Below the pieces are notes generated by a model. The model made no database searches. It saw nothing but the letters and a program-made list of their open reading frames with translations, and had not been told where the DNA came from. DNA of 64,000 nt, taken from the NCBI RefSeq assembly GCF_900105065.1, contig NZ_LT629749.1:3968001-4032000 (forward strand), in the 5' to 3' direction. This document shows positions 37,153-53,349 of this stretch, in pieces (within the stretch, counting starts at the first letter, position 1; each line of letters starts with the position of its first letter). The translations under genes were made by a program, and so were the position numbers. Origin of the DNA: Friedmanniella luteola. GTDB taxonomy: Bacteria; Actinomycetota; Actinomycetes; Propionibacteriales; Propionibacteriaceae.

Positions 37153-38202
37153 TCAGGGCTGCAGCAGGACCTTGATCGCCCGGCGCTCGTCCATCGCCGT
37201 GTACCCGTCGGCCACCTCCGCCAGCGGCAGGGTCAGGTCGAACACCCGGCCCGGGTCGATGGCGCCGGACAGGACGTCGGGCAGCAGCTCCGGGATGTAG
37301 GCCCGCGCGGGAGCGACGCCGCCGGCGACGTTGATGTTGCCGCCGAACATCAGCCGGATGGGCAGCTCGGCACCGCCGCTGGGCACGCCGACGTAGCCGA
37401 CGTGCCCGCCCGGGCGGACCGAGCGCAGCGCCTGGTCCATCGACTCCTTGGTGCCGACGCACTCCAGCACGCAGTCGGGGCCGACGCCGTCGAAGAGGGC
37501 GTGGACGGCCTCGACGCCGGCGTCGCCGCGCTCCTCGAGGACGGTGTCCGCGCCGAACTCCCGGCCCAGGGCCTGCCGGTCGGGGTGCCGGCTGAACAGC
37601 ACGACACGCTCGGCCCCCAGTCGCTTGGCGGCCAGCACCCCGCACAGGCCGACGGCGCCGTCGCCGACCACGGCGACGGTCCTGCCGGGCCCGACGCCGG
37701 CGGAGACGGCGGCGTGGTGGCCGGTGCTCATGACGTCCGAGAGCGTCAGCAGCGAGGGGATCAGCGCGTCCGGCGGCATCTCGTCGGTGCCGACGAGGGT
37801 GCCGTCGGCCCAGGGCACCCGGATGCGGGCGCTCTGCCCGCCGGGCACGGCCAGCCCGTCCTGGTCGTCGGCGCCCCACGAGGCCCCGTGCAGGCAGGAG
37901 GTCTGGACGCCGTTGCGGCAGTTGACGCAGGTGCCGTCGCTGACGACGAACGGGGCGATGACGAACTGCCCGACGCGGAGGTCACGGACCTCGTCGCCGA
38001 CCTCCTCGACGACGCCGACGAACTCGTGGCCGATCGGGTGGGTCTTCTTGGTCTCCTGCACCCCCCGGTAGGGCCAGAGGTCGGAACCGCAGATGCAGGA
38101 GGCGACGACGCGGACGACGGCGTCGGTCGGCTTCTCGACGCGGGGGTCGGCGACCTCGGTGGCGCGGATGTCGCGGGGGCCGTGGATGAGCGTGGCGAGC
38201 AC
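37153..38202 (-). CDS. Zinc-dependent alcohol dehydrogenase family protein
   Basis: A 349-residue medium-chain dehydrogenase. The catalytic zinc site is [11 protein letters not shown] and HPIGHEFVG. The structural zinc loop [15 protein letters not shown] has three cysteines, with Asp where the first is usual. The Rossmann motif is [21 protein letters not shown]. It starts with GTG at 38202, 33 bases after the stop of the upstream SDR. Two SDR genes follow, so several oxidation steps on one carbon skeleton are likely. Confidence 0.9.
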
Positions 38203-39048: not shown

Positions 39049-39872
39049 GACTCGACGATCGAGCGGGTCAGCATGACGATGGTGACGAACGTCCGGAACA
39101 GCCGGACGGGGTCGTCGCCGGTGACCTGGACGGTGCGGGCGTCCACCCGCTCCACCCCGGCCACCCAGGTGGCCATCTCGGCGAAGTCGCCGTTCTGGAA
39201 CAGGATCTCCAGCGTGGCGGGCAGGGCGATCTGCGGCGGGACGGCATCGGCGAGACCGGCGATGGCCGCGGCGGCGGCGTCCCGGATCAGCGCCTTCGCC
39301 TCGGTCGGGTGCAGCGACTCGGCCGCGAACCGGGTCACGGAGTGCTTCACGACGGCGGTGTGCAGGCCGGGGCTGACCCGGGCGGCCTCCTCGGCCGTGG
39401 TGTCGTCGCCGGTGACCAGCACCACCGGCACCCCGTGGCCCTGGGCGACGAGGGCGTTGATGCCCGACTCCCCCACCTCCACCCCGTTCAGCAGCACGCG
39501 GGCGATGGCGCGCGGGTTGTAGGTGTGGGAGAGCGTCGAGGCCTCGCTGGCCATCGAGCCGTGGTAGCTGACGAAGAAGACGGCGTCGAAGCTCGCGTCG
39601 AGCCCCTGCATCATGTACAGCGGCTTGTGCCGTCCGGACAGGTAGCGGGCGTTGCCCAGCAGCTCGTCCGGCCGCAGGTTCTGCATCGTCGAGTGGGAGT
39701 CGTTGACCAGGAACTCGGTCGCCCCGGCCGAGAGCGCGCCCTCGATGGCCGCGTTGACCTCGTCCTGCAGCAGCCGCCGGTAGTACTGGTACTCGGGGCC
39801 GGGACCGAGGCACTGGCTCCAGTCGACGACACCGGCGGTGCCCTCCATGTCGGAGGACAAGAAGACCTTCAC
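39045..39872 (-). CDS. dppA: D-aminopeptidase DppA family (M55)
   Basis: A 275-residue zinc aminopeptidase of family M55. The metal ligands of the Bacillus subtilis enzyme are present at the same positions: Asp8 and Glu10 (SSDMEG), His60 (NDSHS) and His104 (SYHGS), with a glutamate in the VEVGESGIN segment. These enzymes release N-terminal D-amino acids from short peptides. The start is GTG at 39872, overlapping the upstream stop. In B. subtilis the homologue is also encoded with a dipeptide ABC transporter, as here. The gene symbol refers to the peptidase, not to the E. coli binding protein of the same name. Confidence 0.88.
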   Translation of the reverse strand: MKVFLSSDMEGTAGVVDWSQCLGPGPEYQYYRRLLQDEVNAAIEGALSAGATEFLVNDSHSTMQNLRPDELLGNARYLSGRHKPLYMMQGLDASFDAVFFVSYHGSMASEASTLSHTYNPRAIARVLLNGVEVGESGINALVAQGHGVPVVLVTGDDTTAEEAARVSPGLHTAVVKHSVTRFAAESLHPTEAKALIRDAAAAAIAGLADAVPPQIALPATLEILFQNGDFAEMATWVAGVERVDARTVQVTGDDPVRLFRTFVTIVMLTRSIVES

Positions 39873-40813
39873 AGCACGCTCCTCGGGTGGATCTCAGGTC
39901 CGCACGACCCGGTGGTCATGACGGCGTAGGTGGCCCCGGCCGAGCCGGCCGCGGCCCCGTGCCGGCCGTCGGGGGTGAGGGCCAGCACGCGCAGCTCGGC
40001 CCGGAAGGGGTCCGGCAGGGTGGCGGCGTCGGCCAGGGCCGCGCGGCAGGCCTGGGTGACGTCCGCGCCGCGGCCGAGGGCCTCGACGACGGTGCGGGCC
40101 GTCCCGGCGCGCAGGCTCAGCTCACCGCGGCCGGTGCAGGCCGCACCGCCGGATCGCAGGTCGCACCAGTTGCCGGCGCCGGGCAGGGCCGAGTCGCCGA
40201 CCCGGCCCGGGTACTTCCAGGGGTAGCCGCTGGTGGAGACGCCCACCACCAGCTCCCCGCTCGCGTCCAGCGCGAGGACGTTGATCGTGCCCCACGGGCC
40301 GTCGTGCGGGGCGAAGCGCTGCACCAGGTCCAGGGCGGCGAGCCGGTAGGCCTGGTCGCCCTCCTGCCCGGCGGTCCGCTCCCCCTCGACGTTCTGCTCG
40401 AGCTGCAGAGCCTCGCGGAAGAGCCGCCGGGACTCCTCCGTCAGCAGCTCGGCGGTCTCGAAGCCGCACTCGGCGGCGAAGGTCGCCGCCCCCTCGCCCA
40501 CCAGCAGGCAGTGCTGGGGCAGCCGCTCCATCACCGCGCGGGCGACCGAGATCGGGTGCGGGTAGTCCTGCAGGGCGGCGACGGCGCCGAACGCGCGGCT
40601 GGAACCGACCATCACCGAGGCGTCCAGCTCGACGACCCCGCGAGCGTTCGGCAGCCCGGCCGTCCCCACGTAGTGGTCGGCGAGGTTGTCCTCGCACGCC
40701 CGGAGGGCCACCTCGACGGCGTCGAGCGCCGACCCGCCGGCGCGGAGCACGTCCATGGCCGCGGGCAGGCCGATCTCGCTCCGCTCGGACCCGATGACGA
40801 CGGGGTCGGTCAC
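39869..40813 (-). CDS. Ntn-hydrolase: isoaspartyl peptidase / glycosylasparaginase family
   Basis: A 314-residue N-terminal-nucleophile amidohydrolase (family T2) that would self-cleave before Thr176 in DGPWGTINVLALD to expose the nucleophile. The substrate region TSGYPWKYPGRVGDS then PGAGNW is characteristic of N4-(beta-N-acetylglucosaminyl)-L-asparaginases. It hydrolyses a beta-aspartyl amide or peptide. The GTG at 40813 overlaps the ATPase stop, and its stop overlaps DppA. With DppA it supports a role in breaking down an unusual peptide or amide taken up by the operon's transporter. Confidence 0.88.
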   Translation of the reverse strand: MTDPVVIGSERSEIGLPAAMDVLRAGGSALDAVEVALRACEDNLADHYVGTAGLPNARGVVELDASVMVGSSRAFGAVAALQDYPHPISVARAVMERLPQHCLLVGEGAATFAAECGFETAELLTEESRRLFREALQLEQNVEGERTAGQEGDQAYRLAALDLVQRFAPHDGPWGTINVLALDASGELVVGVSTSGYPWKYPGRVGDSALPGAGNWCDLRSGGAACTGRGELSLRAGTARTVVEALGRGADVTQACRAALADAATLPDPFRAELRVLALTPDGRHGAAAGSAGATYAVMTTGSCGPEIHPRSVL

Positions 40814-41763
40814 CGCAGCCCCGCCTCGACGGCGGGGATCTGCTGGGTGGCCAGCCGGGGCACCGAGGACAGCAGCAGCTGGGTGTAGGGGTCGGCCGGG
40901 TGGGCGAACACGTCCGCGGTGGCGCCCTCCTCCACCACGACGCCGTCGTGCATGACGGCGACCCGGTCGCTGATCTGCCGGACCACGGCCATGTTGTGCG
41001 AGACGAAGAGCATGGACAGCCCGAGGGTCTCCTTCAGGTCCAGCAGCAGGTTGATGATGTTGGCCTGCACGGAGACGTCCAGCGCCGAGACGGGCTCGTC
41101 GGCGATCAGCACCTTCGGGTCCAGCGCCAGCGCGCGCGCGATCCCGATCCGCTGCCGCTGCCCGCCGGAGAACGAGCGGGGCAGCTGGTCGAGCGCCCGG
41201 GCGGGCAGGCCGACCAGGTCGACCAGCTCGCGGACCCGGGCGCCGACCTGGTCGCGGGGCACGACCCGGTGGTAGCGCAGCACCTCCGCCAGCGTCTGGC
41301 CGACGGTCATCCGCGGGTTCAGCGAGCTGTAGGGGTCCTGGAACACCATCTGCACCAGCCGCCGCTGCTCCCGGCTGGGTGCCCCGTGCAGCGGTTGACC
41401 GGCGTAGCGCACGGTGCCCGCCGTCGGCACGTAGAGCCCCGCCGCGCAGCGGCTCAACGTCGACTTGCCGCAGCCCGACTCCCCCACCAGGCCGACCGTC
41501 TCGCCGCGGTGGACGGCGAGGTCCACCCCGTCGACCGCCTTGACCACGGCCGGCGCCCCGCGGGTCAGCTTGGCCCACACCCCGCCGCGCCGGCTGAAGT
41601 GCTGGACCAGCCCCTCGACGGCCAGCAGCTCCTCGCCGGGCTCCGCGCCCTGCGACTCCGCGCCCCGGACCTGCCCCTCCGCGCCCTGAGCCCGTCCCGC
41701 CGCGCCCTGAGCCCGTCCCTCTGCGCCCTGAGCCTGTCGAAGGGCCCGCGTCGACGCGCTCAC
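40810..41763 (-). CDS. Dipeptide-type ABC transporter ATPase (DppF/OppF-like)
   Basis: A 317-residue ATPase with Walker [10 protein letters not shown], signature [15 protein letters not shown], Walker [13 protein letters not shown] and H-loop FVSHNM, then the C-terminal [13 protein letters not shown] typical of OppF-like subunits. The GTG at 41763 overlaps the upstream ATPase stop. Its first 40 residues are not conserved: they are a tandem 7-residue repeat of the RAQGAEG type encoded by a 21-base DNA repeat (41660-41745), inserted before the ATPase domain that starts near [11 protein letters not shown]. Confidence 0.93.
41660..41745. repeat. 21-base tandem repeat inside an ATPase gene
   Basis: Four units start at 41660, 41681, 41702 and 41723, each beginning GCGCCC(T/C)G. 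The last unit ends with GCCCTGAGCCTGTCGAAGGG followed by C (41725-41745), a sequence resembling a dispersed repeat of actinobacterial genomes. Read on the minus strand it encodes repeats of R/Q-A-Q-G-A-E-G at the protein N-terminus. A related array lies at 48514-48557. Confidence 0.85.
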
Positions 41764-42866
41764 GCCCGCACCCCCTCGGCGGCGACCTCGCCGAGGACAC
41801 CGGGCCAGTCCTCGGCCTCGTCGGCCCGGCAGCAGGCGCTGTCGTGCCCGCTGCCGACCACCACCAGGGGTGGCGCGACGGTCGTGCACCGGTCCACCCG
41901 GGCGGGGCAGCGCGGCGCGAAGGAGCAGCCGACGATCTCCTGCAGCAGGTCCGGGGGCTGACCGGGGATGGTCAGCAGCCGGTGCACCGGCTGGTCCGGG
42001 TCGGGCACCGAGCGCAGCAGCGCCGCGGTGTAGGGGTGCCGCGGGGAGTCCAGCAGGACCGACGTCGCGCCGTGCTCCACGATCCGGCCGGCGTACATCA
42101 CGTTCAGCTCCTCGCAGGTGCCGCTCACCACGGCCAGGTCGTGGGTGACGAGCACGAGGCCGACGCCGCGCTCCCGCCGCAGCCCCTCGAGCACGCCCAG
42201 CACCTGCGCCTGGATGGTGACGTCGAGCGCCGTGGTGGGCTCGTCGGCCAGGATCAGCCCGGGCTCGGCCGACAGCGCGATGGCGATGCAGACGCGCTGC
42301 CGCATGCCGCCCGACAGCTCGTGCGGGAAGGCCCGGTAGCGGCTCTCGGGGTCACGGATGCCCACCTGGGACAGCAGGTCGACGGCCCGGGCGTGCGCCG
42401 TCGAGCGGCTCATCCCCAGCCGGCGGCGCGGCACCTCGGCCACCTGGTCGCCGACCCGCATCGTCGGGTTCAGCGCGGTGAGCGAGTCCTGGAAGATCAT
42501 CGCCATCACCGAGGACAGCCGTTCGCGCCGCTTGGCCGGGGCCAGCCCGGTGACGTCCACGCCGTCCACGACGATGCTGCCGCCGGTCACCCGGGCCGGG
42601 CTCGGCAGCAGGTCCATGGCCGCGCGCAGGGTGAGGCTCTTGCCCGACCCCGACTCCCCCACCAGGCCCACCGACCGGCCGGCCGTGGCCGTCAGGGACA
42701 CCTGCCGGACGGCGTGCAGCGTGCCGTCGGGCAGGGGGATCTCCACGTCGACGTCGTGCAGCTCCAGCAGCGGTCGGCCCGAGGCCGGCGTCGGTGCGCT
42801 CATGGTCGTCCACTCCCCCGACGGCGGGGCCGTCATCGTCCACTCCCCCGACGGCGGAGCCGTCAT
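41760..42866 (-). CDS. Dipeptide-type ABC transporter ATPase (DppD/OppD-like)
   Basis: A 368-residue ATPase with Walker A GESGSGKSLT, signature LSGGMRQRVCIAIAL, Walker B LILADEPTTALD, H-loop VTHDLAVV, and the C-terminal cysteine-rich oligopeptide-transporter domain (GCSFAPRCPARVDRC), which can hold an iron-sulfur cluster in this family. The ATG at 42866 overlaps the permease stop in ATGA. A 30-base tandem duplication at the 5-prime end creates two copies of MTAPPSGEWT, so in-frame ATGs at 42866, 42836 and 42803 all exist; the last one begins nearest the conserved domain. Confidence 0.93.
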   Translation of the reverse strand: MTAPPSGEWTMTAPPSGEWTTMSAPTPASGRPLLELHDVDVEIPLPDGTLHAVRQVSLTATAGRSVGLVGESGSGKSLTLRAAMDLLPSPARVTGGSIVVDGVDVTGLAPAKRRERLSSVMAMIFQDSLTALNPTMRVGDQVAEVPRRRLGMSRSTAHARAVDLLSQVGIRDPESRYRAFPHELSGGMRQRVCIAIALSAEPGLILADEPTTALDVTIQAQVLGVLEGLRRERGVGLVLVTHDLAVVSGTCEELNVMYAGRIVEHGATSVLLDSPRHPYTAALLRSVPDPDQPVHRLLTIPGQPPDLLQEIVGCSFAPRCPARVDRCTTVAPPLVVVGSGHDSACCRADEAEDWPGVLGEVAAEGVRA

Positions 42867-42870
42867 CGTC
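42811..42870. repeat. 30-base tandem duplication at a gene start
   Basis: Bases 42811-42840 and 42841-42870 differ at a single position (G versus A at 42828/42858). The unit begins CACTCCCCCGACGGCGG and ends GTCATCGTC. It spans the permease stop and duplicates the start codon region of the downstream ATPase gene, encoding MTAPPSGEWT twice. Confidence 0.9.
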
Positions 42871-43714
42871 CGCTCCTCTGCACGAAGCCGTCCGCGATCA
42901 GCGCGAGCGACAGCCCGGTGACGACGACGGCCAGCCCCGGCACCGCGGCCAGGTACCACTTGGTCAGGATGAAGGCCTGCCCCTCCTGGATCATCGAGCC
43001 CCAGTCGGGGGTGGGCGGCGGCACCCCGAGCCCCAGGTAGCCGAGCGTGACGATGGCCAGGATGCAGAGCACGACGTCGCTCATCGCGAAGACGAACGCC
43101 TGCAGCATCACGTTCGGCAGCAGGTGGCGCAGCAGGATGCGCCAGGTCGGCAGGCCGCTGGCCCGCGCGGCCAGCGCGTACTCCTGCTCCTTGGCCACCA
43201 GCACCTCACCCCGGACGATCCGGGCGTAGGCCACCCAGCCGACGAGGGTGATCGCGATGTAGATGCTCGAGGTGCCCGAGCCGAGTGCGAAGACGAGGGC
43301 GATGACCAGCACGAAGAATGGGAAGGCCACGACCATGTCGACGACGCGCATCAGCACCAGGTCGAACCAGCCGCCGAACCAGCCGGCCAGCAGCCCCAGG
43401 GTGGTGCCGATGAGGAACGGGAACAGGACGGCCAGCGCCCCGACCCGCAGGTCGACGCGGGCTCCGTACAGCAGCCGGGCGAACACGTCGCGACCCAGCT
43501 GGTCGGTGCCGAGCAGGTGCCCGTCGCCGGGCGGCAGCAGCGACTTCGTCAGGTCCTGCTGGATCGGGTCCCAGCTGGTCAGCAGGGGCGCGCAGACCGC
43601 CGCGAGGACGATGAGGGTCAGCAGCACCAGGCCGGCGGTCAGCGTCCGGTTGAGCCGCAGGGGCGCGGTGAGGGTGGCCCGCCGCGAGCGGGCGGTCAGG
43701 ATCGCGGCGCTCAT
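42863..43714 (-). CDS. Dipeptide-type ABC transporter permease (DppC-like)
   Basis: A 283-residue permease with an N-terminal membrane segment, the conserved HLLGTDQLGRDVFARLLYGA region, and a binding-protein-dependent transport domain with the EAA loop (EYALAARASGLPTWRILLRH). Five to six membrane helices are visible. The ATG at 43714 overlaps the upstream permease stop. It pairs with the DppB-like subunit. Confidence 0.94.
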   Translation of the reverse strand: MSAAILTARSRRATLTAPLRLNRTLTAGLVLLTLIVLAAVCAPLLTSWDPIQQDLTKSLLPPGDGHLLGTDQLGRDVFARLLYGARVDLRVGALAVLFPFLIGTTLGLLAGWFGGWFDLVLMRVVDMVVAFPFFVLVIALVFALGSGTSSIYIAITLVGWVAYARIVRGEVLVAKEQEYALAARASGLPTWRILLRHLLPNVMLQAFVFAMSDVVLCILAIVTLGYLGLGVPPPTPDWGSMIQEGQAFILTKWYLAAVPGLAVVVTGLSLALIADGFVQRSGR

Positions 43715-44652
43715 CCGAGCTCCACCCGCGGGTCCAGGACGCCGTGCGCGACGTCGGTCAGCAGGTTGATGATCACGACCATGATCGCGAACACGAGCGT
43801 GACCCCCTGCACCACCGGGAAGTCCCGGTTGAAGATCGAGTCGAGCATGAGCGTGCCCATGCCGGGCAGCGCGAACACCCGCTCGACGACGAGGGTGCTC
43901 CCCACCAGGTAGGCGATGTTGACGCCCAGCACGGTGATCGAGGACACGGACGCGTTGCGGAGCGTGTGCCCGATGATCACCCGCCGGTGGCTGAGCCCCT
44001 TCGCCCGGGCCGTGACGACGTAGTCGCTGTCGAGGACGCCGATCATGGACGTCCGCAGGCTCCGGATGAGGATCGGGGTCAGGGCCAGGGCCACCGTCAG
44101 GCCGGGCAGCACGATGGAGCTGACGTGCTGGGCCGGCGTGGTGCCGAAGCCCGCGACGGGGAAGGCCTTGATCTTGAGCCCGAACAGCAGCACGAGCATG
44201 ATCCCGACCCAGAAGGCCGGCATGCCGAGCCCGATCAGCGGGAGGGCCCGGATCAGCTGGTCGGCCGCGCTGCCCCGCCGGCTGGCGGCCAGCACGGCCA
44301 GCGGCACGCTGATCGCCAGCGCGATCAGGGTGGCCGCGACCAGCAGCCAGAGGGTGGCCGGCAGCCGGCCGGCGACCAGCTCGCTGACGTCGGCGTCGTA
44401 GAAGAACGAGCGTCCGAGGTCTCCGTGCAGGAGCCGGCCGAGGAAGTCCAGGTACTGCTGCCAGATGGGCTGGTCCAGGCCGAACTCACGGTGCAGCGCG
44501 GCCACGGACTCGTCGGTGGCGCGGACGCCGAGCAGCGTCCGGGCCGGGTCCCCCGGCACCAGGTGGATCATGAAGAACACGATCAGCGAGATGCCGAACA
44601 GGACGGGCACCATCGCCACCAGGCGCCGGAGGACGTAGACCAGGTGCCTCAT
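43711..44652 (-). CDS. Dipeptide-type ABC transporter permease (DppB-like)
   Basis: A 313-residue permease. It starts MRHLVYVLRRLVAMVPVLFG, which is typical of DppB/OppB, contains FFMIHLVPGDPA, and has an EAA loop (DYVVTARAKGLSHRRVIIGH). Six membrane helices are evident. The ATG at 44652 lies 55 bases after the binding-protein stop, with a strong hairpin between. Confidence 0.94.
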   Translation of the reverse strand: MRHLVYVLRRLVAMVPVLFGISLIVFFMIHLVPGDPARTLLGVRATDESVAALHREFGLDQPIWQQYLDFLGRLLHGDLGRSFFYDADVSELVAGRLPATLWLLVAATLIALAISVPLAVLAASRRGSAADQLIRALPLIGLGMPAFWVGIMLVLLFGLKIKAFPVAGFGTTPAQHVSSIVLPGLTVALALTPILIRSLRTSMIGVLDSDYVVTARAKGLSHRRVIIGHTLRNASVSSITVLGVNIAYLVGSTLVVERVFALPGMGTLMLDSIFNRDFPVVQGVTLVFAIMVVIINLLTDVAHGVLDPRVELG

Positions 44653-44707: not shown

Positions 44708-46249
44708 TCACTGGGTCAACGTCACGTCCTCGAGGTGGTAGTTCCCGGTCGGGTAGACCTGGAACCCCTGCACCTTCGTGCTGTAGGAGTAGCTGAAGGG
44801 CGAGTAGTAGAGGAAGGCGAGGAACGCGTCCTCGGCGGCCTGCTCCTGGATGGCGCTGTACAGCTCCTGCCGGCCGGCGTCGTCGAAGGTCTGCTGCGCC
44901 TTCTTGGTGTTCGCGATCACCTGGGCGTTGCGGTAGCTGGTGTAGAACGAGCGGCTGCCGGCGTCCGGGTCCACGGCGAACGTGACGAGCTCGTCCGGGT
45001 CGGCGATGTCCATCGTCCAGTAGGAGTGGCTGATCTGGTACTTCTGCGCGTTCTGCAGGTCGCGGGCCGCGCTCGGGTCGGTGTTCTGGATCTTGACCGT
45101 GATGCCCAGCTCCTTGAGCGAGGACTGCAGCACCTGGGCGATCGCGGCGTCGGTGGAGTCACCGGAGGACGCGAGGAAGGTCGTCTCGAACCCGTCCGGC
45201 ACGCTCGACTTGGCCAGCTCCTCCTTGGCCTTGGCCATGTCGTACTGCAGGCCCGGCGTGGCCGGGTCGTAGAAGGGCACGTTCGGCATCAGGAACGAGT
45301 TCGCCGGGGTGCCGTTGCCGAACAGCAGCGTCTTGACCAGGGCCTCGCGGTCGATGGCGTAGGAGATCGCCCGGCGGACGTGCACGTCGTCGTACGGCTT
45401 CTCGTTCTGGTTCATCATGATGTAGTCGGTCTTGGTGCTGGGGAACAGCGTGACCGTGACGCCCGGCTGGCCCTTGAGCTGCTCGACGCTGGAGAACGGC
45501 GGCGCCTGGTTGATCTGGGCCTGGCCGCCCTGGATCTGCACGGTGCGGGCGTTGTCGTCGGGGACGACCTTCCAGGTGACGCTGTCCAGGGCCGGCTTGC
45601 CGGTGTCCCAGTAGGTCGGGTTCTTGGCCAGCTTGATCTCGCTGCCCTTGGTCCAGTGGTCCCACACGAACGGGCCGGTGCCGATCGGCGCCTGGTAGAA
45701 CTCGTCCTTGCTCTTGCCGGCGTAGTCCTTGGGCAGCACGGCGTTGTTGAAGTTCGCCAGGTCCGCCAGCAGCGGCGCCCACGGGTACTTGGTCTTGATC
45801 ACGACGGTGGCCGGGTCGGGCGCGGTGACCGTCTTGATCGCCACGTCCAGGAACTCCCACCCGCCCTCGGTGGCGCGGGCCTTGTCGAGGGAGAACTTGA
45901 CGTCCTCCGACGTCATCGGCTGGCCGTTGCTGAAGGTGACGCCCTGCTTGAGCTTGAAGGTCCAGGTCAGCTTGTCGTCGGAGACGGTGTGGCTCTCGGC
46001 CAGCAGGGGCTGCACGCTCTTGCCGTCCGGGGTCACCTCGTAGAGGGACTCGAACATCTGCTGGAACACCCAGATCGAGTCGTTGCTGAAGACGGTGGTG
46101 TTGTCCATCGACAGGGAGTCGCCGGCGCGGACGATGGTCAGGTCCCCACCGGTCCCGTCGGCGTTGGCCGTGGAGCCGGTGGAGCCGTTGTCGCTGCAGG
46201 CGGCGAGCACCAGCACAGCGGCGGCGAGGAGGGCGATGGGCTTGCGCAA
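44708..46249 (-). CDS. Dipeptide-type (family 5) ABC substrate-binding lipoprotein
   Basis: A 513-residue binding protein. It has a lipoprotein signal ending VLVLAAC, then WTFKLKQGVTFSNGQPMTSE, GTGPFVWDHWTKGSE and VRRAISYAIDREALVKTLLF, all typical of family 5. The start is TTG at 46249, supported by GGAGG five bases upstream. It is gene 1 of an eleven-gene operon and is probably regulated through the site at 46295-46309. The cargo may be a peptide, an opine-like compound or another amide. Confidence 0.94.
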   Translation of the reverse strand: MRKPIALLAAAVLVLAACSDNGSTGSTANADGTGGDLTIVRAGDSLSMDNTTVFSNDSIWVFQQMFESLYEVTPDGKSVQPLLAESHTVSDDKLTWTFKLKQGVTFSNGQPMTSEDVKFSLDKARATEGGWEFLDVAIKTVTAPDPATVVIKTKYPWAPLLADLANFNNAVLPKDYAGKSKDEFYQAPIGTGPFVWDHWTKGSEIKLAKNPTYWDTGKPALDSVTWKVVPDDNARTVQIQGGQAQINQAPPFSSVEQLKGQPGVTVTLFPSTKTDYIMMNQNEKPYDDVHVRRAISYAIDREALVKTLLFGNGTPANSFLMPNVPFYDPATPGLQYDMAKAKEELAKSSVPDGFETTFLASSGDSTDAAIAQVLQSSLKELGITVKIQNTDPSAARDLQNAQKYQISHSYWTMDIADPDELVTFAVDPDAGSRSFYTSYRNAQVIANTKKAQQTFDDAGRQELYSAIQEQAAEDAFLAFLYYSPFSYSYSTKVQGFQVYPTGNYHLEDVTLTQ

Positions 46250-46294: not shown

Positions 46295-46309
46295 GGCTGA
46301 TATGTCAGG
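46295..46309 (-). promoter_or_regulatory. Candidate FCD/GntR operator, copy 1
   Basis: GGCTGATATGTCAGG contains CTGA-N4-TCAG dyad symmetry and matches the site at 53378-53392 at 12 of 15 positions in the same orientation. It lies 46 bases upstream of the transporter operon start and 61 bases upstream of the divergent fusion gene, so it could control both. The AT-rich core stands out in this genome. Confidence 0.45.
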
Positions 46310-46369: not shown

Positions 46370-48568
46370 ATGCTGCGGGACGTGCAGACCGTGGTGATCG
46401 GGGCCGGGGCCGTCGGGGGCACCGTGGCGGCCCATCTCGTCGAGGCCGGGGAGGACGTGCTGCTCTGCGACGTCGACCCCGTGCACGTCGACGCCCTGAA
46501 CGCGCACGGCCTGCGGGTCGTGGGGCCCGTGCGGGAGCTGACCGTGCCCGTCCGGGCCGCACTGCCCGCCGACCTGCCCGACCGGGTCGAGCGGGCGGTG
46601 GTCGCCGTGAAGTCCCACCACACCGCCGACGCCGCGGCCCTGCTGCGGCACCGGCTGGCTCCCGAGGGGCACGTGCTCTCGCTGCAGAACGGGATGACGA
46701 CGCCGGCCCTGGCGGAGGCCGTGGGCGCCGACCGGGTGGTGGTCGGCTTCGTGAACTTCGGGGCGGACCTGCTGGAGCCGGGCGTGGTGCTGCTGGGCAA
46801 CGTCGCGACCGTCCGCGTCGGCGAGCCGTCGGGGCCCGTCACCGACCGGGTGCGGGCGTGGGCGCGCCGGCTGCCCTGGGCGGAGGCCACCGACAACATC
46901 GACGGCTACCGGTGGAGCAAGGAGGCCTACGGCGCCATGCTCTTCGCCACCGCCGTCTCCGACCTCACGATCGCCGACGCCCTCGCCGATCCCCGGTACC
47001 GCCCGCTGATGCTGGGGCTGGCCCGCGAGGTGGTGGGGCTGGCCCGGGCGCAGCACCCACCCGTCCGGCTCGAGGCGTTCGACGGCTTCGACCCGGACGA
47101 CCTCGAGGGGTCGCTGGACCGCCTCGTCCGCTTCAACCGGGCCAGCGCCAAGGTCCGGACGGGCGTCTACCGCGACCTCGCCGTCCGGCACCGCAGGACC
47201 GAGGTGGACGACCTGGCCGGGCTCGGCGGCCGGCTGACCGGTCACGTCGTCGCCGTGGTCCGCGCGATCGAACGGGGCGCGCGGCGCTGCGAGGTGGCCA
47301 ACCTCGACCTGCTCGCCGCCCACGAGCGGCTGGAGCGGCTCGGCCGGCCGCTGCACGCCGTCGTCCGGGCGCTGCCGGCTCCCGCCCGGGCGGCCGACGG
47401 GCCGCTGCTGGGGGTGCCGGTGGCGGTCAAGGACATGATGGACGTCGCCGGGGTGCCGCGCGGCAACGGCAACCCGCGCGCGATGCTCGAGCCGCCCGCC
47501 ACCACCGACGCGCCCGTCGTCGCCCGGCTGCGGGCGGCCGCCGCGGACGTCTTCGCCACCGCCAGCCTGCTGGAGTACGCGGCCGGGGCCCCGCACCCGG
47601 ACCTCCCCGAGGCCCGGCTGCCCGTCGACCCCACCCGCACCGCCGGTGGGTCCAGCGGCGGCTCGGCCGCGCTGGTCGCCGCCGGCGTCTGCCCCGCCGC
47701 GCTGGGCACCGATACCGGCGGTTCGATCCGGATCCCGGCCGCCTACGTCGGCTGCGTCGGGTTCAAGCCGAGCCACGGCGTCGTCCCGGTCGACGGGGTG
47801 ACCGCGCTGTCCCCGTCGCTCGACCACGTGGGCGTGCTGGCGGCCGACGTCGCCACCGCCGCACGGGTGCTGGCGGTGCTCGGCGACGTCCGACCCGGAG
47901 CGCCCCGGCGGGCGGTGGACCTGCGCCTCGGGCTGCTGCGGGCCGAGCTGGACGACCCGCGGGTCGAGCCGGGCGTGCGGGCCGCGCTGGAGGCGGGTCT
48001 GCAGCGCCTGGTCGCCGCCGGGGTCACCCTCGTCGACGTCGACGCCGCACCCCTGCAGGCGCTGCACCCGACCTTCGAACCCATCCTCCTGTTCGAGGCC
48101 TGGGCCGAGCACGGGGAGCGGGCCACGGCTGATCCCACCTGGTTCGGCCCCGACACCGACCGGCTGCTCCGGCTCGGCGCCACCGTGGCGCCGTCGACCT
48201 ACCGGGCCGCCCTCGACCGGCGGGCCGCCCTGCTGCCCGCCGCCGACGCGGTGCTGGACGGCCTGGACGGGCTGCTCGGGCCGGCGGTCGCCTTCGTCGC
48301 CCCGACGGGCACCCCGCTGCTCGACTCGCCGGAGGGCGAGCTGGAAGGGCTGTTCTCGATGACGGCGAACCTCACGGGCCAGCCGGCGCTGTCGCTGCCC
48401 TGCGGCGACGCCGGCGGCCTGCCCGTCGGGCTGCAGCTGGCCGGCCGGCGCGGCGACGACGCCGGGCTGCTGGCGGTGGCCGCGGTGGTGGAGCAGGTGC
48501 TGGTCGGTTCCCCGCGCCCTGGGCCCGGTCCGCGGCGCCCTGGGCCCGTCGGAGGGCACGCCCGGTGA
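46370..48568 (+). CDS. Ketopantoate reductase-like and amidase fusion protein
   Basis: A 732-residue fusion. Residues about 1-315 are a ketopantoate reductase/ApbA-type NADP-dependent reductase: VVIGAGAVGGTVAAHL (11-16 is GxGxxG), SLQNGM (108 is Asn) and WSKEAYGAM with the likely catalytic Lys184. Residues about 325-720 are an amidase-signature hydrolase with the Ser-cisSer-Lys triad: Lys354 (VPVAVKDM), Ser428/429 (AGGSSGGS) and Ser452 (TDTGGSIRIP). The join lies in LDLLAAHERLERLGRPLHAV, without loss of either core. The ATG at 46370 is preferred, with GTG at 46382 possible. The SDR gene overlaps its stop. The C-terminal tail is proline/glycine repeats encoded by a 21-base repeat. Confidence 0.85.
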   Translation: MLRDVQTVVIGAGAVGGTVAAHLVEAGEDVLLCDVDPVHVDALNAHGLRVVGPVRELTVPVRAALPADLPDRVERAVVAVKSHHTADAAALLRHRLAPEGHVLSLQNGMTTPALAEAVGADRVVVGFVNFGADLLEPGVVLLGNVATVRVGEPSGPVTDRVRAWARRLPWAEATDNIDGYRWSKEAYGAMLFATAVSDLTIADALADPRYRPLMLGLAREVVGLARAQHPPVRLEAFDGFDPDDLEGSLDRLVRFNRASAKVRTGVYRDLAVRHRRTEVDDLAGLGGRLTGHVVAVVRAIERGARRCEVANLDLLAAHERLERLGRPLHAVVRALPAPARAADGPLLGVPVAVKDMMDVAGVPRGNGNPRAMLEPPATTDAPVVARLRAAAADVFATASLLEYAAGAPHPDLPEARLPVDPTRTAGGSSGGSAALVAAGVCPAALGTDTGGSIRIPAAYVGCVGFKPSHGVVPVDGVTALSPSLDHVGVLAADVATAARVLAVLGDVRPGAPRRAVDLRLGLLRAELDDPRVEPGVRAALEAGLQRLVAAGVTLVDVDAAPLQALHPTFEPILLFEAWAEHGERATADPTWFGPDTDRLLRLGATVAPSTYRAALDRRAALLPAADAVLDGLDGLLGPAVAFVAPTGTPLLDSPEGELEGLFSMTANLTGQPALSLPCGDAGGLPVGLQLAGRRGDDAGLLAVAAVVEQVLVGSPRPGPGPRRPGPVGGHAR
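48514..48557. repeat. 21-base repeat at the end of the fusion gene
   Basis: Two units start at 48514 and 48535 (GCGCCCTGGGCCCG...), at the same 21-base spacing as the array at 41660-41745. The terminal element at 48535-48557 matches the one at 41723-41745 at 20 of 23 positions. It encodes the PRPGPGPRRPGPVGG tail, outside the amidase fold. Confidence 0.75.
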
Positions 48569-49281
48569 GCGGGCTCGCCGGGAAGGTCGCGCTGGTCACC
48601 GGGACTGCGCACGGGATCGGGGCGGCGATCGCCGCGGCGCTCGCGGCGGACGGGGCGACGGTGCACGGCGTCGACCGCGTCCCCGCGCCCGGCGTCGAGC
48701 CGCTGGACGTCACCGACGCCGCCGCGGTGGCGGCCTTCGTCGCGCGGGTCGGTCCCGTGGACGTGCTGGTCAACAACGCGGGCGGGGTGGCCGGCCAGAC
48801 GGGTCGACCGGTCGAGGAGGTGACGGACGAGGACTGGCGGGCCGTCGTCGACGCCAACCTGACCAGCACCTTCGTCTGCACCCGGGCCGTCGTCCCCGGC
48901 ATGAAGGCCCGCGGCTGGGGCCGGGTCGTCAACATCTCCTCGGGGGCGGGCCGCAGCGTGAGCCTCACCGGCATCCAGGCCTACGCCAGCGCCAAGGCCG
49001 GGCAGATCGGCTTCACCCGGCAGATGGCGCACGAGCTCGGCCGGTTCGGGATCACCGTCAACTGCATCGCGCCGGGCTTCGTGCTCTCCAACCCGAGCAC
49101 GGAGGCGCAGTGGGAGAGCTACGGGGAGGAGGGCCAGGCCGCCCTGCTCGCCGGGATCGCCGTCCGCCGGCTGGGCACCCCGGCCGACATCGCCCACGGC
49201 GTCCGGTTCTTCACCGCCGAGGCCTCGTCCTGGGTGACCGGGCAGACCATCGCCGTCGACGGCGGCCACGGGATCTTCTGA
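48565..49281 (+). CDS. Short-chain dehydrogenase/reductase
   Basis: A 238-residue SDR: TGTAHGIG cofactor motif, NNAGGV, and an active site of SSGAGRSVSLTGIQAYASAKAG (Ser, Tyr, Lys), ending AVDGGHGIF. The GTG at 48565 overlaps the fusion gene stop by GTGA, so the two are translationally coupled. It is the fourth SDR of the cluster and likely works on the same compound family. Confidence 0.9.
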   Translation: MSGLAGKVALVTGTAHGIGAAIAAALAADGATVHGVDRVPAPGVEPLDVTDAAAVAAFVARVGPVDVLVNNAGGVAGQTGRPVEEVTDEDWRAVVDANLTSTFVCTRAVVPGMKARGWGRVVNISSGAGRSVSLTGIQAYASAKAGQIGFTRQMAHELGRFGITVNCIAPGFVLSNPSTEAQWESYGEEGQAALLAGIAVRRLGTPADIAHGVRFFTAEASSWVTGQTIAVDGGHGIF

Positions 49282-49979: not shown

Positions 49980-50747
49980 TCAGCCCGCCGCCGCGACGTC
50001 GCGGGGCACCGGGGTCGCGACCGGGACGACCGAGGTCTGCAGCGTGCTCCGGTCGACGACCAGCATCTGACCGTTGCGCACCGCGCTCCATCCCGTGCTG
50101 TCGGTCCAGCCCGTCGAGGTGACGACGACGCGGTCGCCGCTGCGCCGGTGCAGCAGGGTGAAGTAGTCCGGGTCGGCGTCGGCCGCGGGGTCGTGGGAGG
50201 AGACAGCGTACAGATGGCTCGGCGTCAGGAGCAGTGCGTTCAGGCTGCTGACGACAGCGCCGCTCGCGACCACCGCCTCGACCGTCCGGATCAGCGCGGT
50301 CCCCGGCTCCTCCTCCCGCATCCGCGAGCGGAGCGCCAGGAAGTAGCGCTCGCTGTCGGTCGTGCCCCGGCGCTCGCCCGCCAGCTCGGGCGCCACCAGG
50401 GCGTCCAGGGCGGCCGGCGGCTTGACCGACCCGTTGTGCGCGAAGGCGACCGTGCCGTCGGTGAAGGGGTGGGTGTTGTCGGGGCCCACGGCCAGGCCCA
50501 GCGTCGCCCATCGGAGGTGGGTGATGGCGGCGACGGCTGGCTCGCCGGCGGCCAGGGCGCCCAGCGCCGGGCTGGTCAGCGCCGAACCCGCCTCCCTGCG
50601 CACGCGCAGGTCCGCCCCCGAGCTCCAGGCGTGCCCCCAGCCGTCGCCGTGCTTGCGGGCGAGGGCGAAGAAGTCGTCACGACGGTCGGCGAGGACCTCG
50701 TCGATGGTCACCGGCGTGCGGGACACCGATCCGAGCAGGCGGCACAT
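49980..50747 (-). CDS. Class II glutamine amidotransferase / gamma-glutamyl hydrolase-like
   Basis: A 255-residue Ntn-type class II amidotransferase domain protein. After removal of Met1 the nucleophile would be Cys2 (MCRLLG). The GDGWGHAW, THLRWATLG, HPFTDGTVAFAHNGS and RGTTDSE segments are the glutamine-binding and oxyanion elements. Stand-alone members include EgtC, which hydrolyses a gamma-glutamyl amide, so a hydrolase role is plausible. Its place after a glutamine-synthetase-like ligase and a FluG-type amidohydrolase suggests removal of a gamma-glutamyl group. Confidence 0.88.
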   Translation of the reverse strand: MCRLLGSVSRTPVTIDEVLADRRDDFFALARKHGDGWGHAWSSGADLRVRREAGSALTSPALGALAAGEPAVAAITHLRWATLGLAVGPDNTHPFTDGTVAFAHNGSVKPPAALDALVAPELAGERRGTTDSERYFLALRSRMREEEPGTALIRTVEAVVASGAVVSSLNALLLTPSHLYAVSSHDPAADADPDYFTLLHRRSGDRVVVTSTGWTDSTGWSAVRNGQMLVVDRSTLQTSVVPVATPVPRDVAAAG

Positions 50748-50795
50748 GGGATCTCCTGGGGGAGGCGACGACGGGGGTCGTCGCGAGGTCCGAGG

Positions 50796-51956
50796 TCAGC
50801 GGGCGGCGCCGAAGCCGTAGAGGGACCAGGCGTTGTCCTTCAGGACCCGCTCGCCGGTGAGCTGGGCCTGGTCGGGGGTGAGGTCGCCGTCGGCGACCAG
50901 CTCGTCGAGGGCCTCGCCCAGCAGCCGTCGGCCGTCGTGGGCGCCCATCCGGTGCAGCTCGGGCACGCGGGCGCCGTCCGAGCTGTACATCAGCCGGCTG
51001 GCGGGCGCGGTGCCGAGCGCGGCCCGGGTCACGCGGCGCATCTCACCGCGGGACAGGAACGGGATGCCGTAGGACAGGTCGAGCCAGGCGTTGCCGTAGA
51101 CCGCCGCGAGGAAGGCGCCCTCGCGGACGTAGGGCCAGCAGCCGTGCAGCAGCACCACCGGCATCCCGCGGTAGGCGGGCTCCTCCAGCACCGGGCGCAG
51201 CAGCAGCGGGTCGGCCAGCCGCAGGTCCAGGTCGGGGTCGCCGTAGCCGACGTGCAGCTGCACCGGCAGCTCCTGCGCGGCGGCCGCCGCGAAGGCCAGG
51301 TGCAGCAGGGTGTCGAGCAGCGGCTGGTGGCCGAGCCGGACGGAGCCGGCGGACGTGGCCTCCGCGCGGGCCTCGGCCCACGCCGTACGGGCGGCGTCGT
51401 CGGACCAGCGGGCGACGGCCAGGCCGGTGCGGTAGCCGACGACGGACTTGAAGCCGGCCCACCCGTCTCCGCGGGCGTCGGCGACGAGGGCGCGGACGGC
51501 GTCGACCAGGGCGGGGTAGGAGCCGGTCTCGCCGACGAGGCGCTCGAACTCGGGTTCCAGCCGGAGCAGGCCCACCGCCGGGCACCCGCCCGACCGCCCC
51601 ATGTCCTCGACGGTCAGCGCGGTGGCGGCGTCGGGGAAGCCGGTGTCGACGACGAGGCCCCCCAGCCGGGCGTCCCCCAGGAGGTCGGCGGTCAGCCGCT
51701 CGGCCCCGAGGGCCGCACGAGCGTCCAGCACGACCTCCTCGACCGGGTCGACGTCGTGGAAGAGCGCCATCTCGGTGACCAGCCGCTGGTAGAACACCGT
51801 GCTGGCCACGTCGACGGCCCGGGTCCGCGGGTCGGGCGACTCGGTGAACAGCCCCCGCCAGGCGGTGACGTCGCGCTGGCCCTGGTCGCGCAGCACCGCG
51901 TGGCAGTGGTTGTCGACCACGGCCACGTCGCCCAGGTCGGTCGCGGGGGCGGCCAT
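50796..51956 (-). CDS. Amidohydrolase, FluG N-terminal-domain type
   Basis: A 386-residue TIM-barrel amidohydrolase (amidohydrolase_2). It has the metal-binding VVDNHCHAVL near the N-terminus, LPVQLHVGYGDPD and VVLLHGCWPY in the middle, and the late Asp in RLMYSSDGARVPEL. In fungal FluG and plant NodGS proteins this domain is fused to a glutamine-synthetase domain; here it is encoded one base after the stop of exactly such a gene. The order is reversed relative to the fusions, so this is not a broken fusion. Confidence 0.88.
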   Translation of the reverse strand: MAAPATDLGDVAVVDNHCHAVLRDQGQRDVTAWRGLFTESPDPRTRAVDVASTVFYQRLVTEMALFHDVDPVEEVVLDARAALGAERLTADLLGDARLGGLVVDTGFPDAATALTVEDMGRSGGCPAVGLLRLEPEFERLVGETGSYPALVDAVRALVADARGDGWAGFKSVVGYRTGLAVARWSDDAARTAWAEARAEATSAGSVRLGHQPLLDTLLHLAFAAAAAQELPVQLHVGYGDPDLDLRLADPLLLRPVLEEPAYRGMPVVLLHGCWPYVREGAFLAAVYGNAWLDLSYGIPFLSRGEMRRVTRAALGTAPASRLMYSSDGARVPELHRMGAHDGRRLLGEALDELVADGDLTPDQAQLTGERVLKDNAWSLYGFGAAR

Positions 51957-51957
51957 C

Positions 51958-53349
51958 TCAGAACCGGTAGAAGTGGTGACGGACCTCGAACGCGACGTCC
52001 TGGGCGGCGAACGCGGCGTGCTCGGAACGGCGGACGGCCAGGTAGCAGCGCGACAGCAGCGGCCCCAGCGCGTCCATCAGCACCGGGTCGGCCTGCAGCA
52101 GGTCGAGCGCGACGTCCATCGACGACGGCAGCGGCCGGACCCGGCCCCGCGCCAGCTCCTCGGGGCCCATCCGGGCCGGGTCGTGGGCGGACGGCTCGCC
52201 CGGTTCCAGCCGGCGCTCGATGCCGTCCAGGCCGCAGGCGATCAGCGCGCCCAGCGACAGGTACGGGTTGGCGCTGGGGTCGGAGACCTTGTACTCGATG
52301 TTGAAGGTCTGCTCCTCGCGCCGGTAGAACGGCGAGGCGACCCGGAGCGCCGCCTCCCGGTTGTCGAAGCCCCAGGCCGTGGTGGCCGAGGCCCAGGCGC
52401 TGGGCACGAGCCGGCGGAACGAGTTGTAGCTGGGCACGGTGAGAGCGGTCAGCGCGGGCAGGTGCTCCGCGACGCCGGCGATGAAGTGCCGGCCGAGCGC
52501 CGACAGGCCCCCCTCGACGTCGGGGTCGTACAGCAGGCTGCGCGTCCCGGAGGCGTCCCACAGGCTGAAGTGGACGTGGGCCCCGCTGCCGATGGCGTCG
52601 GGGAAGGGCTTGGCGGCGAACGAGGCCAGGATGCCGTGCCGCTGGGCGACGCCCCGGACGGTGTCGCGGAACTTCATCTGCTGGTCGGCGGCGGCGAGCG
52701 CGTCGGTGTGCCGTACCGAGATCTCGCGCTGGCCGGGCCCGTACTCGTTGATGCACTGCTCGACGACGATCCCCTGGGCGGTCAGCGCGTCGACGGTCTC
52801 CAGCATCAGCGCGTCGGCGTGGTCGTGCCCGATGGCGCTGTAGACCGGGGAGTGGGTCGGACCGTCGACCGGCTGGAAGCCACCCTCGACCTCGGTCGCC
52901 AGGTAGTACTCGTTCTCGAAGGTCGCCTGGAGGGTGATCCCGAGACCGGCGGCGCGGGCGAGGACGCGTTGCAGGAACGAGCGCGGGCACGCGCCCCAGT
53001 CCTGGCGGTCGTGGTCGAGCTGGTCGCAGAGGACGCTCGCGCTCCCCGGCGACCAGGGCAGCACAGTGAAGGTCGCGGGGTCGGGCACCAGCCGGATCTC
53101 CCCCACCGGTTCCATGCCCTCGACCGGGACGACCTGCTCCAGCAGGTCGATCGCCATCTGGGCGCGGGTCAGCCCGACGCCCTCGACGAGCTTGTGCGCC
53201 AGCTGGTCGACGTGGACGGCCTTGGCCCGGGCGACGCCGCTCACGTCGCAGTACTCGAAGCGGACCAGCCGGACCCCCGCGGCGCGCGCGGCCGCTACGA
53301 CCTCGGCGACCTGCGGGTCGACCGCCGTGCTGAGCTCTGCCGCGGGCAC
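51958..53349 (-). CDS. Glutamine synthetase-family ligase (FluG/GlnA3/PuuA-like)
   Basis: A 463-residue glutamine-synthetase homologue. The beta-grasp part spans about residues 15-110, and the catalytic part includes FENEYYLA, NEYGPGQREISVRHTDALAA, IGSGAHVHFSLWD, NSFRRLVPSAWA, WGFDNREAALRV and EYKVSDPSANPYLSLGA. ATP and glutamate residues look conserved, so it should ligate glutamate to ammonia or, more likely in this setting, to an amine. The GTG at 53349 has GAGGAGG upstream. It leads a four-gene operon with amidohydrolase, amidotransferase and GntR genes. Confidence 0.92.
   Translation of the reverse strand: MPAAELSTAVDPQVAEVVAAARAAGVRLVRFEYCDVSGVARAKAVHVDQLAHKLVEGVGLTRAQMAIDLLEQVVPVEGMEPVGEIRLVPDPATFTVLPWSPGSASVLCDQLDHDRQDWGACPRSFLQRVLARAAGLGITLQATFENEYYLATEVEGGFQPVDGPTHSPVYSAIGHDHADALMLETVDALTAQGIVVEQCINEYGPGQREISVRHTDALAAADQQMKFRDTVRGVAQRHGILASFAAKPFPDAIGSGAHVHFSLWDASGTRSLLYDPDVEGGLSALGRHFIAGVAEHLPALTALTVPSYNSFRRLVPSAWASATTAWGFDNREAALRVASPFYRREEQTFNIEYKVSDPSANPYLSLGALIACGLDGIERRLEPGEPSAHDPARMGPEELARGRVRPLPSSMDVALDLLQADPVLMDALGPLLSRCYLAVRRSEHAAFAAQDVAFEVRHHFYRF

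What the first reader, a model, noticed from the sequence alone, without database searches (positions are those of the whole stretch)
46370..48568. Ketopantoate-reductase/amidase fusion enzyme
One continuous frame encodes a complete ApbA/PanE-type reductase (GAGAVG, QNGM, Lys184) followed by a complete amidase-signature enzyme (Lys354, Ser428/429, Ser452). I know of no standard enzyme with this order. It suggests a two-step route in which an amide is cleaved and the product, or a keto intermediate, is handled by the reductase domain. The adjacent overlapping SDR and the divergent peptide-type transporter strengthen the pathway idea.
Basis: partly seen in the sequence, partly recalled or inferred. 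Interest (0 to 1): 0.7.

Follow-up and report, generated by a model that had tools for sequence, protein, structure and literature searches.

The report
Dehydrogenase–amidase fusion in peptide cluster
This bacterial gene joins two enzymes, one that probably oxidises or reduces a hydroxy acid and one that probably cuts amide bonds, into a single protein, and it sits in a conserved gene cluster that seems to take up and break down unusual peptides.

Summary
Window 46370-48568 (+) is one open frame for a 732-residue protein with a ketopantoate-reductase-family (KPR) half and an amidase-signature half. It is not a sequencing artefact: the genome is one contig, and 23 further distinct fusions (51-73% identical, no internal stops) occur, mostly in actinobacteria. 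Quick trees put the fused KPRs, and the fused amidases, each in one clade, which points to one fusion event; later losses left KPR-only (L058) and amidase-only genes (G443, G538).

The fusion lies in a conserved cluster: a divergent dipeptide-type ABC transporter, then an Asparaginase_2-family hydrolase and an M55 D-aminopeptidase; an SDR overlapping the fusion; a GntR regulator; in some relatives methylaspartate ammonia-lyase and M19, M20 and other hydrolases. Asparaginase_2 is single-copy in 12 of 12 genomes and within 6.5 kb of the fusion or amidase in 11.

The KPR half is unlikely to be PanE: Asp34 predicts NAD(H), and two pocket Asn are replaced. Stand-alone relatives are usually paired with an SDR. 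Best reading: a bifunctional NAD-linked 2-hydroxyacid dehydrogenase–amidase for non-standard peptides, substrate unknown. I found no description of this architecture in eight searches; both parent families are known.

The parts
46370..48568 (+). KPR-amidase fusion gene, 732 aa
   Evidence: relatives
46370..47323 (+). KPR-family NAD-binding dehydrogenase half (residues 1-318)
   Evidence: Pfam ApbA and ApbA_C; model pLDDT 94.7, KPR fold
47294..47353 (+). Continuous helix (residues 309-328) joining the KPR C-terminus to the amidase
   Evidence: AlphaFold model, pLDDT 93.6, pTM 0.91
47387..48472 (+). Amidase-signature half (residues 340-701) with Lys354, Ser428, Ser452
   Evidence: Pfam PF01425 227.9 bits; Foldseek to malonamidase E2, TMt 0.88-0.90
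48565..49281 (+). SDR-family oxidoreductase overlapping the fusion by 4 bases
   Evidence: orthologue 84% identical beside the fusion in L041
49328..49972 (-). GntR/FCD transcriptional regulator
   Evidence: 61-63% identical regulator near the fusion in three relatives
46297..46308 (.). Operator-like inverted repeat CTGATATGTCAG in the divergent intergenic region
   Evidence: the pattern CTGANATNTCAG was found in 11 of 138 loci, which are 6 distinct fusion loci, each time upstream of the fusion
44708..46249 (-). Substrate-binding protein of dipeptide-type ABC transporter (OppA/DppA-like)
   Evidence: PF00496 342 bits; 82-86% identical in three relatives
43711..44652 (-). ABC transporter permease, OppB-like
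   Evidence: position and conservation; not scanned against Pfam, name from the sequence as read
42863..43714 (-). ABC transporter permease, OppC-like
   Evidence: position and conservation; not scanned against Pfam
41760..42959 (-). ABC transporter ATPase, OppD-like (start uncertain)
   Evidence: position, conservation and the ABC motifs seen in the translation; not scanned
40810..41889 (-). ABC transporter ATPase, OppF-like (start uncertain)
   Evidence: position, conservation and the ABC motifs seen in the translation; not scanned
39908..40762 (-). Asparaginase_2 family hydrolase (isoaspartyl peptidase/asparaginase type); HMM extent
   Evidence: PF01112 200.7 bits, only match in the genome
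39045..39872 (-). M55 D-aminopeptidase family protein
   Evidence: PF04951 317.8 bits, only match in the genome
38236..39045 (-). Second SDR next to M55 (5' end approximate); possible further member
   Evidence: tblastn 41% to a cluster SDR query, frame; membership inferred from position
37153..38202 (-). Zinc-type alcohol dehydrogenase; possible member
   Evidence: tblastn 52% to the Zn-ADH directly behind the fusion in L050, frame

Best explanation
The gene encodes one bifunctional protein. The N-terminal half is a member of an uncharacterised, probably NAD(H)-dependent subfamily of the KPR/D-2-hydroxyacid dehydrogenase fold, which interconverts a 2-hydroxy acid and a 2-oxo acid; oxidation is more likely in this catabolic setting. 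The C-terminal half is an amidase-signature hydrolase (Ser452, cis-Ser428, Lys354) that cleaves an amide. Both work inside a catabolic cluster in which a dipeptide-type ABC transporter imports a non-standard peptide or amide. Asparaginase_2-type, D-aminopeptidase and other hydrolases trim it, the fusion removes an amide and handles the hydroxy/oxo-acid step, and the overlapping SDR carries out another redox step. Shown by computation: the fusion, its conservation, the conserved catalytic residues, the predicted folds and the cluster; supported by quick trees: a single origin. Inferred: NAD preference, oxidation direction, the class of substrate, and that both domains act in one pathway. Unknown: the actual substrate.
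For: Both domains over Pfam cut-off; catalytic residues of both halves in 24 of 24 full-length fusions; confident model in which one helix joins the halves; folds match KPR/D-mandelate dehydrogenase and malonamidase E2 and other amidases. Asp34 at the end of beta-2 in 30 of 30 KPR rows and Gly188 in 29 of 30; solved D-mandelate dehydrogenase 8wl1 also has Asp there, while ketopantoate reductase 5ayv (same family as 5hws, which was solved with NADP+) has Gly-Arg. Fused KPRs plus L058 form one clade, SH-aLRT 100; fused amidases plus two amidase-only genes form one clade, 98. Asparaginase_2 is single-copy in 12 of 12 genomes and within 6.5 kb of the fusion or amidase in 11 of 12; M55 within 7.5 kb in 11 of 12; controls 5 and 2 of 14 genomes. 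Strong methylaspartate ammonia-lyase matches in 6 of 12 genomes, each within 10 kb of the fusion. Stand-alone KPR relatives have an SDR directly downstream in 38 of 60 and just upstream in 11 of 60; 42 of 60 have a gene of one of five hydrolase clusters near.
Against: No substrate is known and no activity was measured. The amidase-only genomes G443 and G538 keep much of the cluster without any KPR match at E <= 1e-10, and L058 keeps the KPR without an amidase in its frame, so the two steps are separable and may not be consecutive. The four genomes of the window's genus have no strong methylaspartate ammonia-lyase match and the window genome has no match to the alpha/beta hydrolase at E <= 1e-20, so the gene set is not fixed. 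OppA, OppB and OppC were each found in only 14 of 28 loci, many on short contigs. I made no random-locus control for the hydrolase neighbours. NAD preference and oxidation direction rest on sequence alone.
Confidence: 0.55

Rival explanations
1. Pantothenate breakdown: the amidase half is a pantothenase (pantothenate to pantoate plus beta-alanine) and the KPR half oxidises pantoate.
For: KPR is the ketopantoate reductase fold; the protein behind bacterial pantothenase activity is stated to be unknown in PMC10393543 (passages read), so such a gene remains to be found. In 5 of 12 genomes the fusion's KPR half is the only TIGR00745 match.
Against: Two Asn, four and eight residues after the catalytic Lys, are present in solved KPR-family proteins 3hwr and 8wl1 but are Gly188 and Phe192 here. 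Asparaginase_2, M55, M19, M20 and methylaspartate ammonia-lyase have no role in pantothenate breakdown that I know of.
Confidence: 0.08
2. The KPR half and the SDR form a redox pair that inverts a hydroxyl centre: one oxidises and the other re-reduces with opposite face. The amidase then acts on the inverted product.
For: The KPR-SDR pairing also occurs without the fusion (38 of 60 downstream, 11 of 60 upstream).
Against: No structural or biochemical evidence; the SDR could equally act on a different carbon or a later intermediate.
Confidence: 0.15
3. Only one half is an active enzyme; the other is a retained domain with a scaffold or regulatory role.
For: Either half can be absent in relatives (L058; G443 and G538), and the amidase half lacks the N-terminal region of the unfused amidase of L060.
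Against: Catalytic residues of both halves are kept in 24 of 24 full-length fusions, which are 51-73% identical to the window's.
Confidence: 0.12
4. The fusion is a sequencing, assembly or frame error between two adjacent genes.
For: None found. Reads were not available.
Against: Single-contig genome, even codon-position GC, and fused relatives without internal stops in many assemblies.
Confidence: 0.01

Closest known systems
Ketopantoate reductase PanE (TIGR00745, PF02558/PF08546)
   Same: Fold (Foldseek to KPR 5hws/5ayv, TMt 0.83-0.84; E. coli KPR 2ofp 0.77), GxGxxG, QNG, catalytic Lys and the C-terminal Glu.
   Different: 129.5 bits against the 141.35 cut-off, acidic residue at beta-2, both downstream pocket Asn replaced, fused to an amidase, catabolic context.
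KPR-family D-mandelate dehydrogenase (PDB 3wfi, 3wfj, 5x20, 8wl1)
   Same: Fold (TMt 0.83 to 5x20) and the Asp at the end of beta-2 (8wl1 alignment).
   Different: About 20% identity; 8wl1 keeps the Asn pair that is replaced here; no fusion.
Amidase signature enzymes, nearest solved: probable amidase 2dc0 and malonamidase E2 (1ocl, 1obl)
   Same: Ser-cisSer-Lys residues, fold (TMt 0.88-0.90 to malonamidase E2, 0.78 to 2dc0), 29-32% identity.
   Different: Begins in the KPR C-terminal helix; no NCBIfam cut-off reached among the 25 of 43 rows shown.
Dipeptide operon with M55 D-aminopeptidase (B. subtilis dpp; recalled, not compared here)
   Same: Dipeptide-type ABC transporter genes near an M55 D-aminopeptidase gene.
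   Different: Here with Asparaginase_2, KPR-amidase, SDRs and, in some relatives, methylaspartate ammonia-lyase.

Membership tests
Ketopantoate reductase PanE | Score over TIGR00745 cut-off (141.35 bits) | tested here: not met
   129.5 bits. Weak test: 0 of 12 genomes have any match over the cut-off, and the separate KPR genes of the window's genus (108.7-132.3 bits) also fail it; 8 of 14 control genomes pass
Ketopantoate reductase PanE | KPR fold with catalytic Lys | tested here: met
   predicted fold; K184 in 30 of 30 rows
Ketopantoate reductase PanE | Asn at +4 and +8 after the catalytic Lys (substrate pocket; role recalled) | tested here: not met
   Gly188 in 24 of 24 fusions, position 192 Phe 14, Tyr 9, Ala 1; Asn at both places in 3hwr and 8wl1
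Ketopantoate reductase PanE | Reduces ketopantoate with NADPH | not testable with these tools
   sequence only; Asp34 argues for NAD(H)
Amidase signature family | PF01425 over cut-off | tested here: met
   227.9 bits, cut-off 27
Amidase signature family | Ser-cisSer-Lys residues and fold (triad recalled) | tested here: met
   Lys354, Ser428, Ser452 in 24 of 24 fusions; predicted fold
D-2-hydroxyacid dehydrogenases of the KPR fold | Acidic residue at beta-2 end (NAD type) | tested here: met
   D34 in 30 of 30 rows, aligned to Asp of 8wl1
D-2-hydroxyacid dehydrogenases of the KPR fold | Activity on 2-hydroxy/2-oxo acids | not testable with these tools
   none
dpp-type peptide operon | M55 gene near a dipeptide ABC transporter | tested here: met
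dpp-type peptide operon | LD-carboxypeptidase and Ala-Glu epimerase genes in the operon | not tested
   no search was run for these families

The most novel reading that the evidence does not exclude
The fusion is the core of an undescribed, patchily distributed catabolic cluster in Actinomycetota, including small-genome lineages, that degrades peptides with beta-linked (iso)aspartyl or 3-methylaspartyl and D-residues, such as aged protein or nonribosomal peptides. Its KPR subfamily, paired with an SDR across several phyla, is a new class of catabolic dehydrogenase.
Probability: 0.3. Interest if true: 0.72.

Novelty: new variant of a known kind. Interest (0 to 1): 0.52.

Why it matters
Automatic annotation is likely to call this gene an amidase or a 2-dehydropantoate 2-reductase; the second name is probably wrong. 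The recurring cluster gives a concrete, testable handle on how actinobacteria may use peptides that ordinary peptidases cannot cut. The KPR-SDR pair beside hydrolases in Pseudomonadota and other phyla suggests a widespread redox step of unknown chemistry.

Tried and rejected
Frame error was tested and rejected. PanE identity was tested; the pocket and cofactor residues argue against it, while the cut-off test is weak because the separate KPR genes of the genus fail it too. Pantothenate breakdown was considered; it is not excluded but not favoured. Microcystin was considered as a substrate because methylaspartate ammonia-lyase, Asparaginase_2 and D-aminopeptidase genes co-occur with the fusion; nothing tests it, so it is only a thought. 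Cyclic-imide breakdown was considered because of NodB-type deacetylase, creatininase and flavin-reductase neighbours in some stand-alone loci; only some loci have them. A paper listed for 'pane' (PMC12366243; outline with abstract, and passages) matched on words such as 'panel' and concerns another dehydrogenase family.

Literature: eight searches. None of the listed papers was about this fusion or cluster by title and start of abstract; several lists were capped (20 of 38, 10 of 44, 10 of 77), and only aimed at the fusion or the KPR neighbours directly. Only PMC12366243 and PMC10393543 were opened (passages). The library holds open-licence PMC papers only. Plasmid records: 0 with one place covering 80% of the protein. 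A 13-base repeat at the 3' end of the gene was checked: 4 exact copies in the genome, two of them here.

The simple GC-based gene caller miscalled several neighbours, for example calling the wrong strand over the Asparaginase_2 gene; it was replaced by HMM or tblastn results where it mattered. Rows left out: alignment A4 holds 22 of the 30 KPR rows of A3; L117, left out of A4, has Ile instead of Gly188. L044 is left out of the amidase tree because its amidase part is cut by the contig end.

Full report
Observation. The frame 46370-48568 (+) is open and encodes 732 residues. Pfam finds ApbA (8-153), ApbA_C (176-284, 29.1 bits, cut-off 22.7) and Amidase (340-701). The window lies in a single-contig genome of 4.72 Mb, 100% complete. 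GC at third codon positions is 0.98 before the join, 0.96 across it and 0.95 after it.

Not an artefact. Among 196 genomes of relatives, four hold the full-length fusion, all of the window's genus: the window's own and three at 71-73% identity, no stops inside. A search of the 20 held genomes of the genus gives 4 of 20. At E <= 1e-60, of 394 genomes drawn from the class 7 hold the fusion, the window's own included, and 2 more hold only the amidase part; the matches in G287 and G327 carry stops, but these lie beyond the frame ends (frames of 707 and 713 aa). Of 396 drawn from the phylum, only the window's own matches. Of these 80, 17 are fused (L044 is cut by the contig end; L043 was not flagged by the script because the amidase match ran past its frame end, but its frame is 715 aa), 2 (L081, L093) run off the contig within the KPR part, 1 (L058) is unfused, and 60 are stand-alone KPRs. 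After removing duplicates (L040 is L046; L043 is L138) there are 24 distinct full-length fusions with the window's, 702-774 aa as read, no internal stops, 51-73% identical to the window's; L048 begins at a contig end and lacks a few first residues. The record titles are actinobacterial or unassigned ('bacterium'), apart from one labelled Spirochaetaceae that is probably mislabelled. The distribution is patchy.

One origin and two kinds of loss. In a tree of 82 KPR sequences the 20 fused ones and L058 form one clade (SH-aLRT 100) apart from the 61 stand-alone ones, with L058 nested inside (97). In a tree of 53 amidases the 24 fused ones and the two amidase-only genes form one clade (98), the amidase-only genes nested with 21 fused ones (100) on a long branch. 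These are quick searches without bootstrap, and the amidase tree carries long-branch warnings; L060's separate amidase as sister (89) is weak. L058, a draft metagenome contig, has the KPR followed by methylaspartate ammonia-lyase, a creatininase-family gene and an M20 dipeptidase. G443 and G538 keep the amidase at the same place between the transporter and the SDR and have no TIGR00745 match at E <= 1e-10 in the genome.

Join and structure. AlphaFold with a 31-row alignment gives pLDDT 93.6 and pTM 0.91; residues 309-328 form one helix that runs from the KPR C-terminus into the amidase. The unfused amidase of L060 has roughly 25 further residues before this point (frame start uncertain). Foldseek matches the amidase half to 2dc0 (TMt 0.78) and malonamidase E2 (0.88-0.90), among many amidases. 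A model of the KPR half (pLDDT 94.7) matches ketopantoate reductase 5hws/5ayv and D-mandelate dehydrogenase 5x20/3wfj (TMt up to 0.84); E. coli ketopantoate reductase 2ofp comes lower (0.77).

What the KPR half is. Lys184, Asn107 of QNG, Glu278 and Asp34 at the end of beta-2 are in 30 of 30 KPR rows, fused and stand-alone. In the alignment with solved structures D-mandelate dehydrogenase 8wl1 also has Asp at the Asp34 column, 5ayv has Gly followed by Arg, and 3hwr has a gap followed by Ala-Arg. That this position separates NAD from NADP enzymes is general knowledge, not tested here. Solved KPR-family proteins 3hwr and 8wl1 have Asn four and eight residues after the Lys; here these are Gly188 (24 of 24 fusions; 29 of 30 KPR rows, L117 has Ile) and Phe, Tyr or Ala (14, 9 and 1 of 24 fusions). 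Their role in binding ketopantoate in E. coli PanE is recalled. The protein scores 129.5 bits against the PanE cut-off of 141.35, but this says little: none of the 12 genomes has a match over the cut-off, the separate KPR genes of the window's genus (108.7-132.3 bits) included, while 8 of 14 control genomes do.

The cluster. Three relatives of the genus share the order: Opp-type ABC transporter genes, divergent fusion, SDR, alpha/beta hydrolase, GntR. The window genome has no match to the alpha/beta hydrolase at E <= 1e-20. Beyond the transporter ATPases lie an Asparaginase_2 gene (HMM 39908-40762) and an M55 D-aminopeptidase gene (39045-39872). In 12 genomes (10 fused, 2 amidase-only) Asparaginase_2 is single-copy in all 12 and within 6.5 kb on the same contig in 11; in G397 it is on another contig beside M55. 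M55 is single in 11 of 12 (two in G327) and within 7.5 kb in 11. In 14 control genomes Asparaginase_2 occurs in 5 and M55 in 2. Strong methylaspartate ammonia-lyase matches (331 bits or more) occur in 6 of the 12, each within 10 kb of the fusion; all 12 genomes and 11 of 14 controls (2 over cut-off) have some match to the same model at E <= 0.001, as expected for the wider enolase group; the four genomes of the window's genus have only weak ones. By tblastn at 38% identity or more over 28 loci (25 fused with the partial L044, plus L058, L131, L132; many on short contigs) the tally is SDR 21, OppA 14, alpha/beta hydrolase 12, M55 11, Asparaginase_2 11, M19 10, AstE-type 8, DUF885 8, Zn-ADH 8, GntR 6, methylaspartate ammonia-lyase 6, M20 5, creatininase 3. 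This search missed the window's own Asparaginase_2, so low numbers are lower bounds; the SDR and Zn-ADH tallies count any gene of that similarity in the stretch.

Regulation. An inverted repeat CTGANATNTCAG lies upstream of the fusion in 6 distinct loci (window, G014, G017, G003, L044, L045) and in none of the 127 other loci held at that time. More distant fusion loci do not have it exactly. That GntR binds it is inferred.

Stand-alone relatives. Of 60 stand-alone KPRs, 38 have an SDR starting within 150 bases downstream (44-60% identical to the window's SDR) and 11 have one ending within 200 bases upstream (35-53%); 11 have neither, five of them with under 2 kb of sequence downstream. By clustering, 42 of 60 have a gene of one of five hydrolase clusters (NodB-type deacetylase, creatininase, three M20 clusters) in the stretch; similarity searches add some of the other 18 (families). 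There was no random-locus control. If this association holds, the link to amide and peptide hydrolases is older than the fusion.

Mechanism. The most economical reading is a bifunctional enzyme for a non-standard peptide or amide: amidase cleavage plus a 2-hydroxy/2-oxo acid step, with the SDR doing another redox step. Sequence evidence supports the parts and their association; substrate, direction and order of steps are inference. Because either half can be lost while much of the cluster stays, the two steps need not be consecutive.

Novelty. No paper listed in eight searches was about the architecture or the cluster (lists partly capped, seen as listings except two papers opened in passages). 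Both parent families are well known, so I rate it a new variant of a known kind.

Noticed in passing
window 49980-53349 (-): A class II amidotransferase (EgtC model 62 bits, below its cut-off), an Amidohydro_2 protein and a gamma-glutamylputrescine-synthetase-like glutamine synthetase (427 bits, below its cut-off of 650) lie side by side, a possible gamma-glutamyl amine pathway.
   Followed up: no
L043 (JAJAYQ010000246.1) and L138 (G287:C245): A contig labelled Spirochaetaceae carries the cluster; its fusion DNA is identical to that of G287, which the whole-genome tool places in the window's class, so the public label is probably wrong.
   Followed up: partly
L060-L122: A KPR-SDR gene pair, often near creatininase, NodB-type deacetylase or M20 hydrolase genes, recurs in Pseudomonadota, Acidobacteriota, Bacillota, Deinococcota and actinobacteria; its function is not known to me.
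   Followed up: partly
window 48514-48547 and 41681-41714: Two 21-base-spaced copies of a 13-base motif sit at the 3' end of the fusion, in the tail that the other three fusions of the genus lack, and a pair with one mismatch lies in the OppF N-terminal region; the exact motif occurs 4 times in the genome.
   Followed up: partly
L131, L132 (G443, G538): Small-genome actinobacteria keep the amidase half and much of the cluster but have no TIGR00745 match at E <= 1e-10.
   Followed up: yes
G303, G397, G505, G327, G287: The KPR half of the fusion is the only TIGR00745 match at E <= 1e-10 in these genomes, so automatic annotation may take it for their PanE.
   Followed up: no
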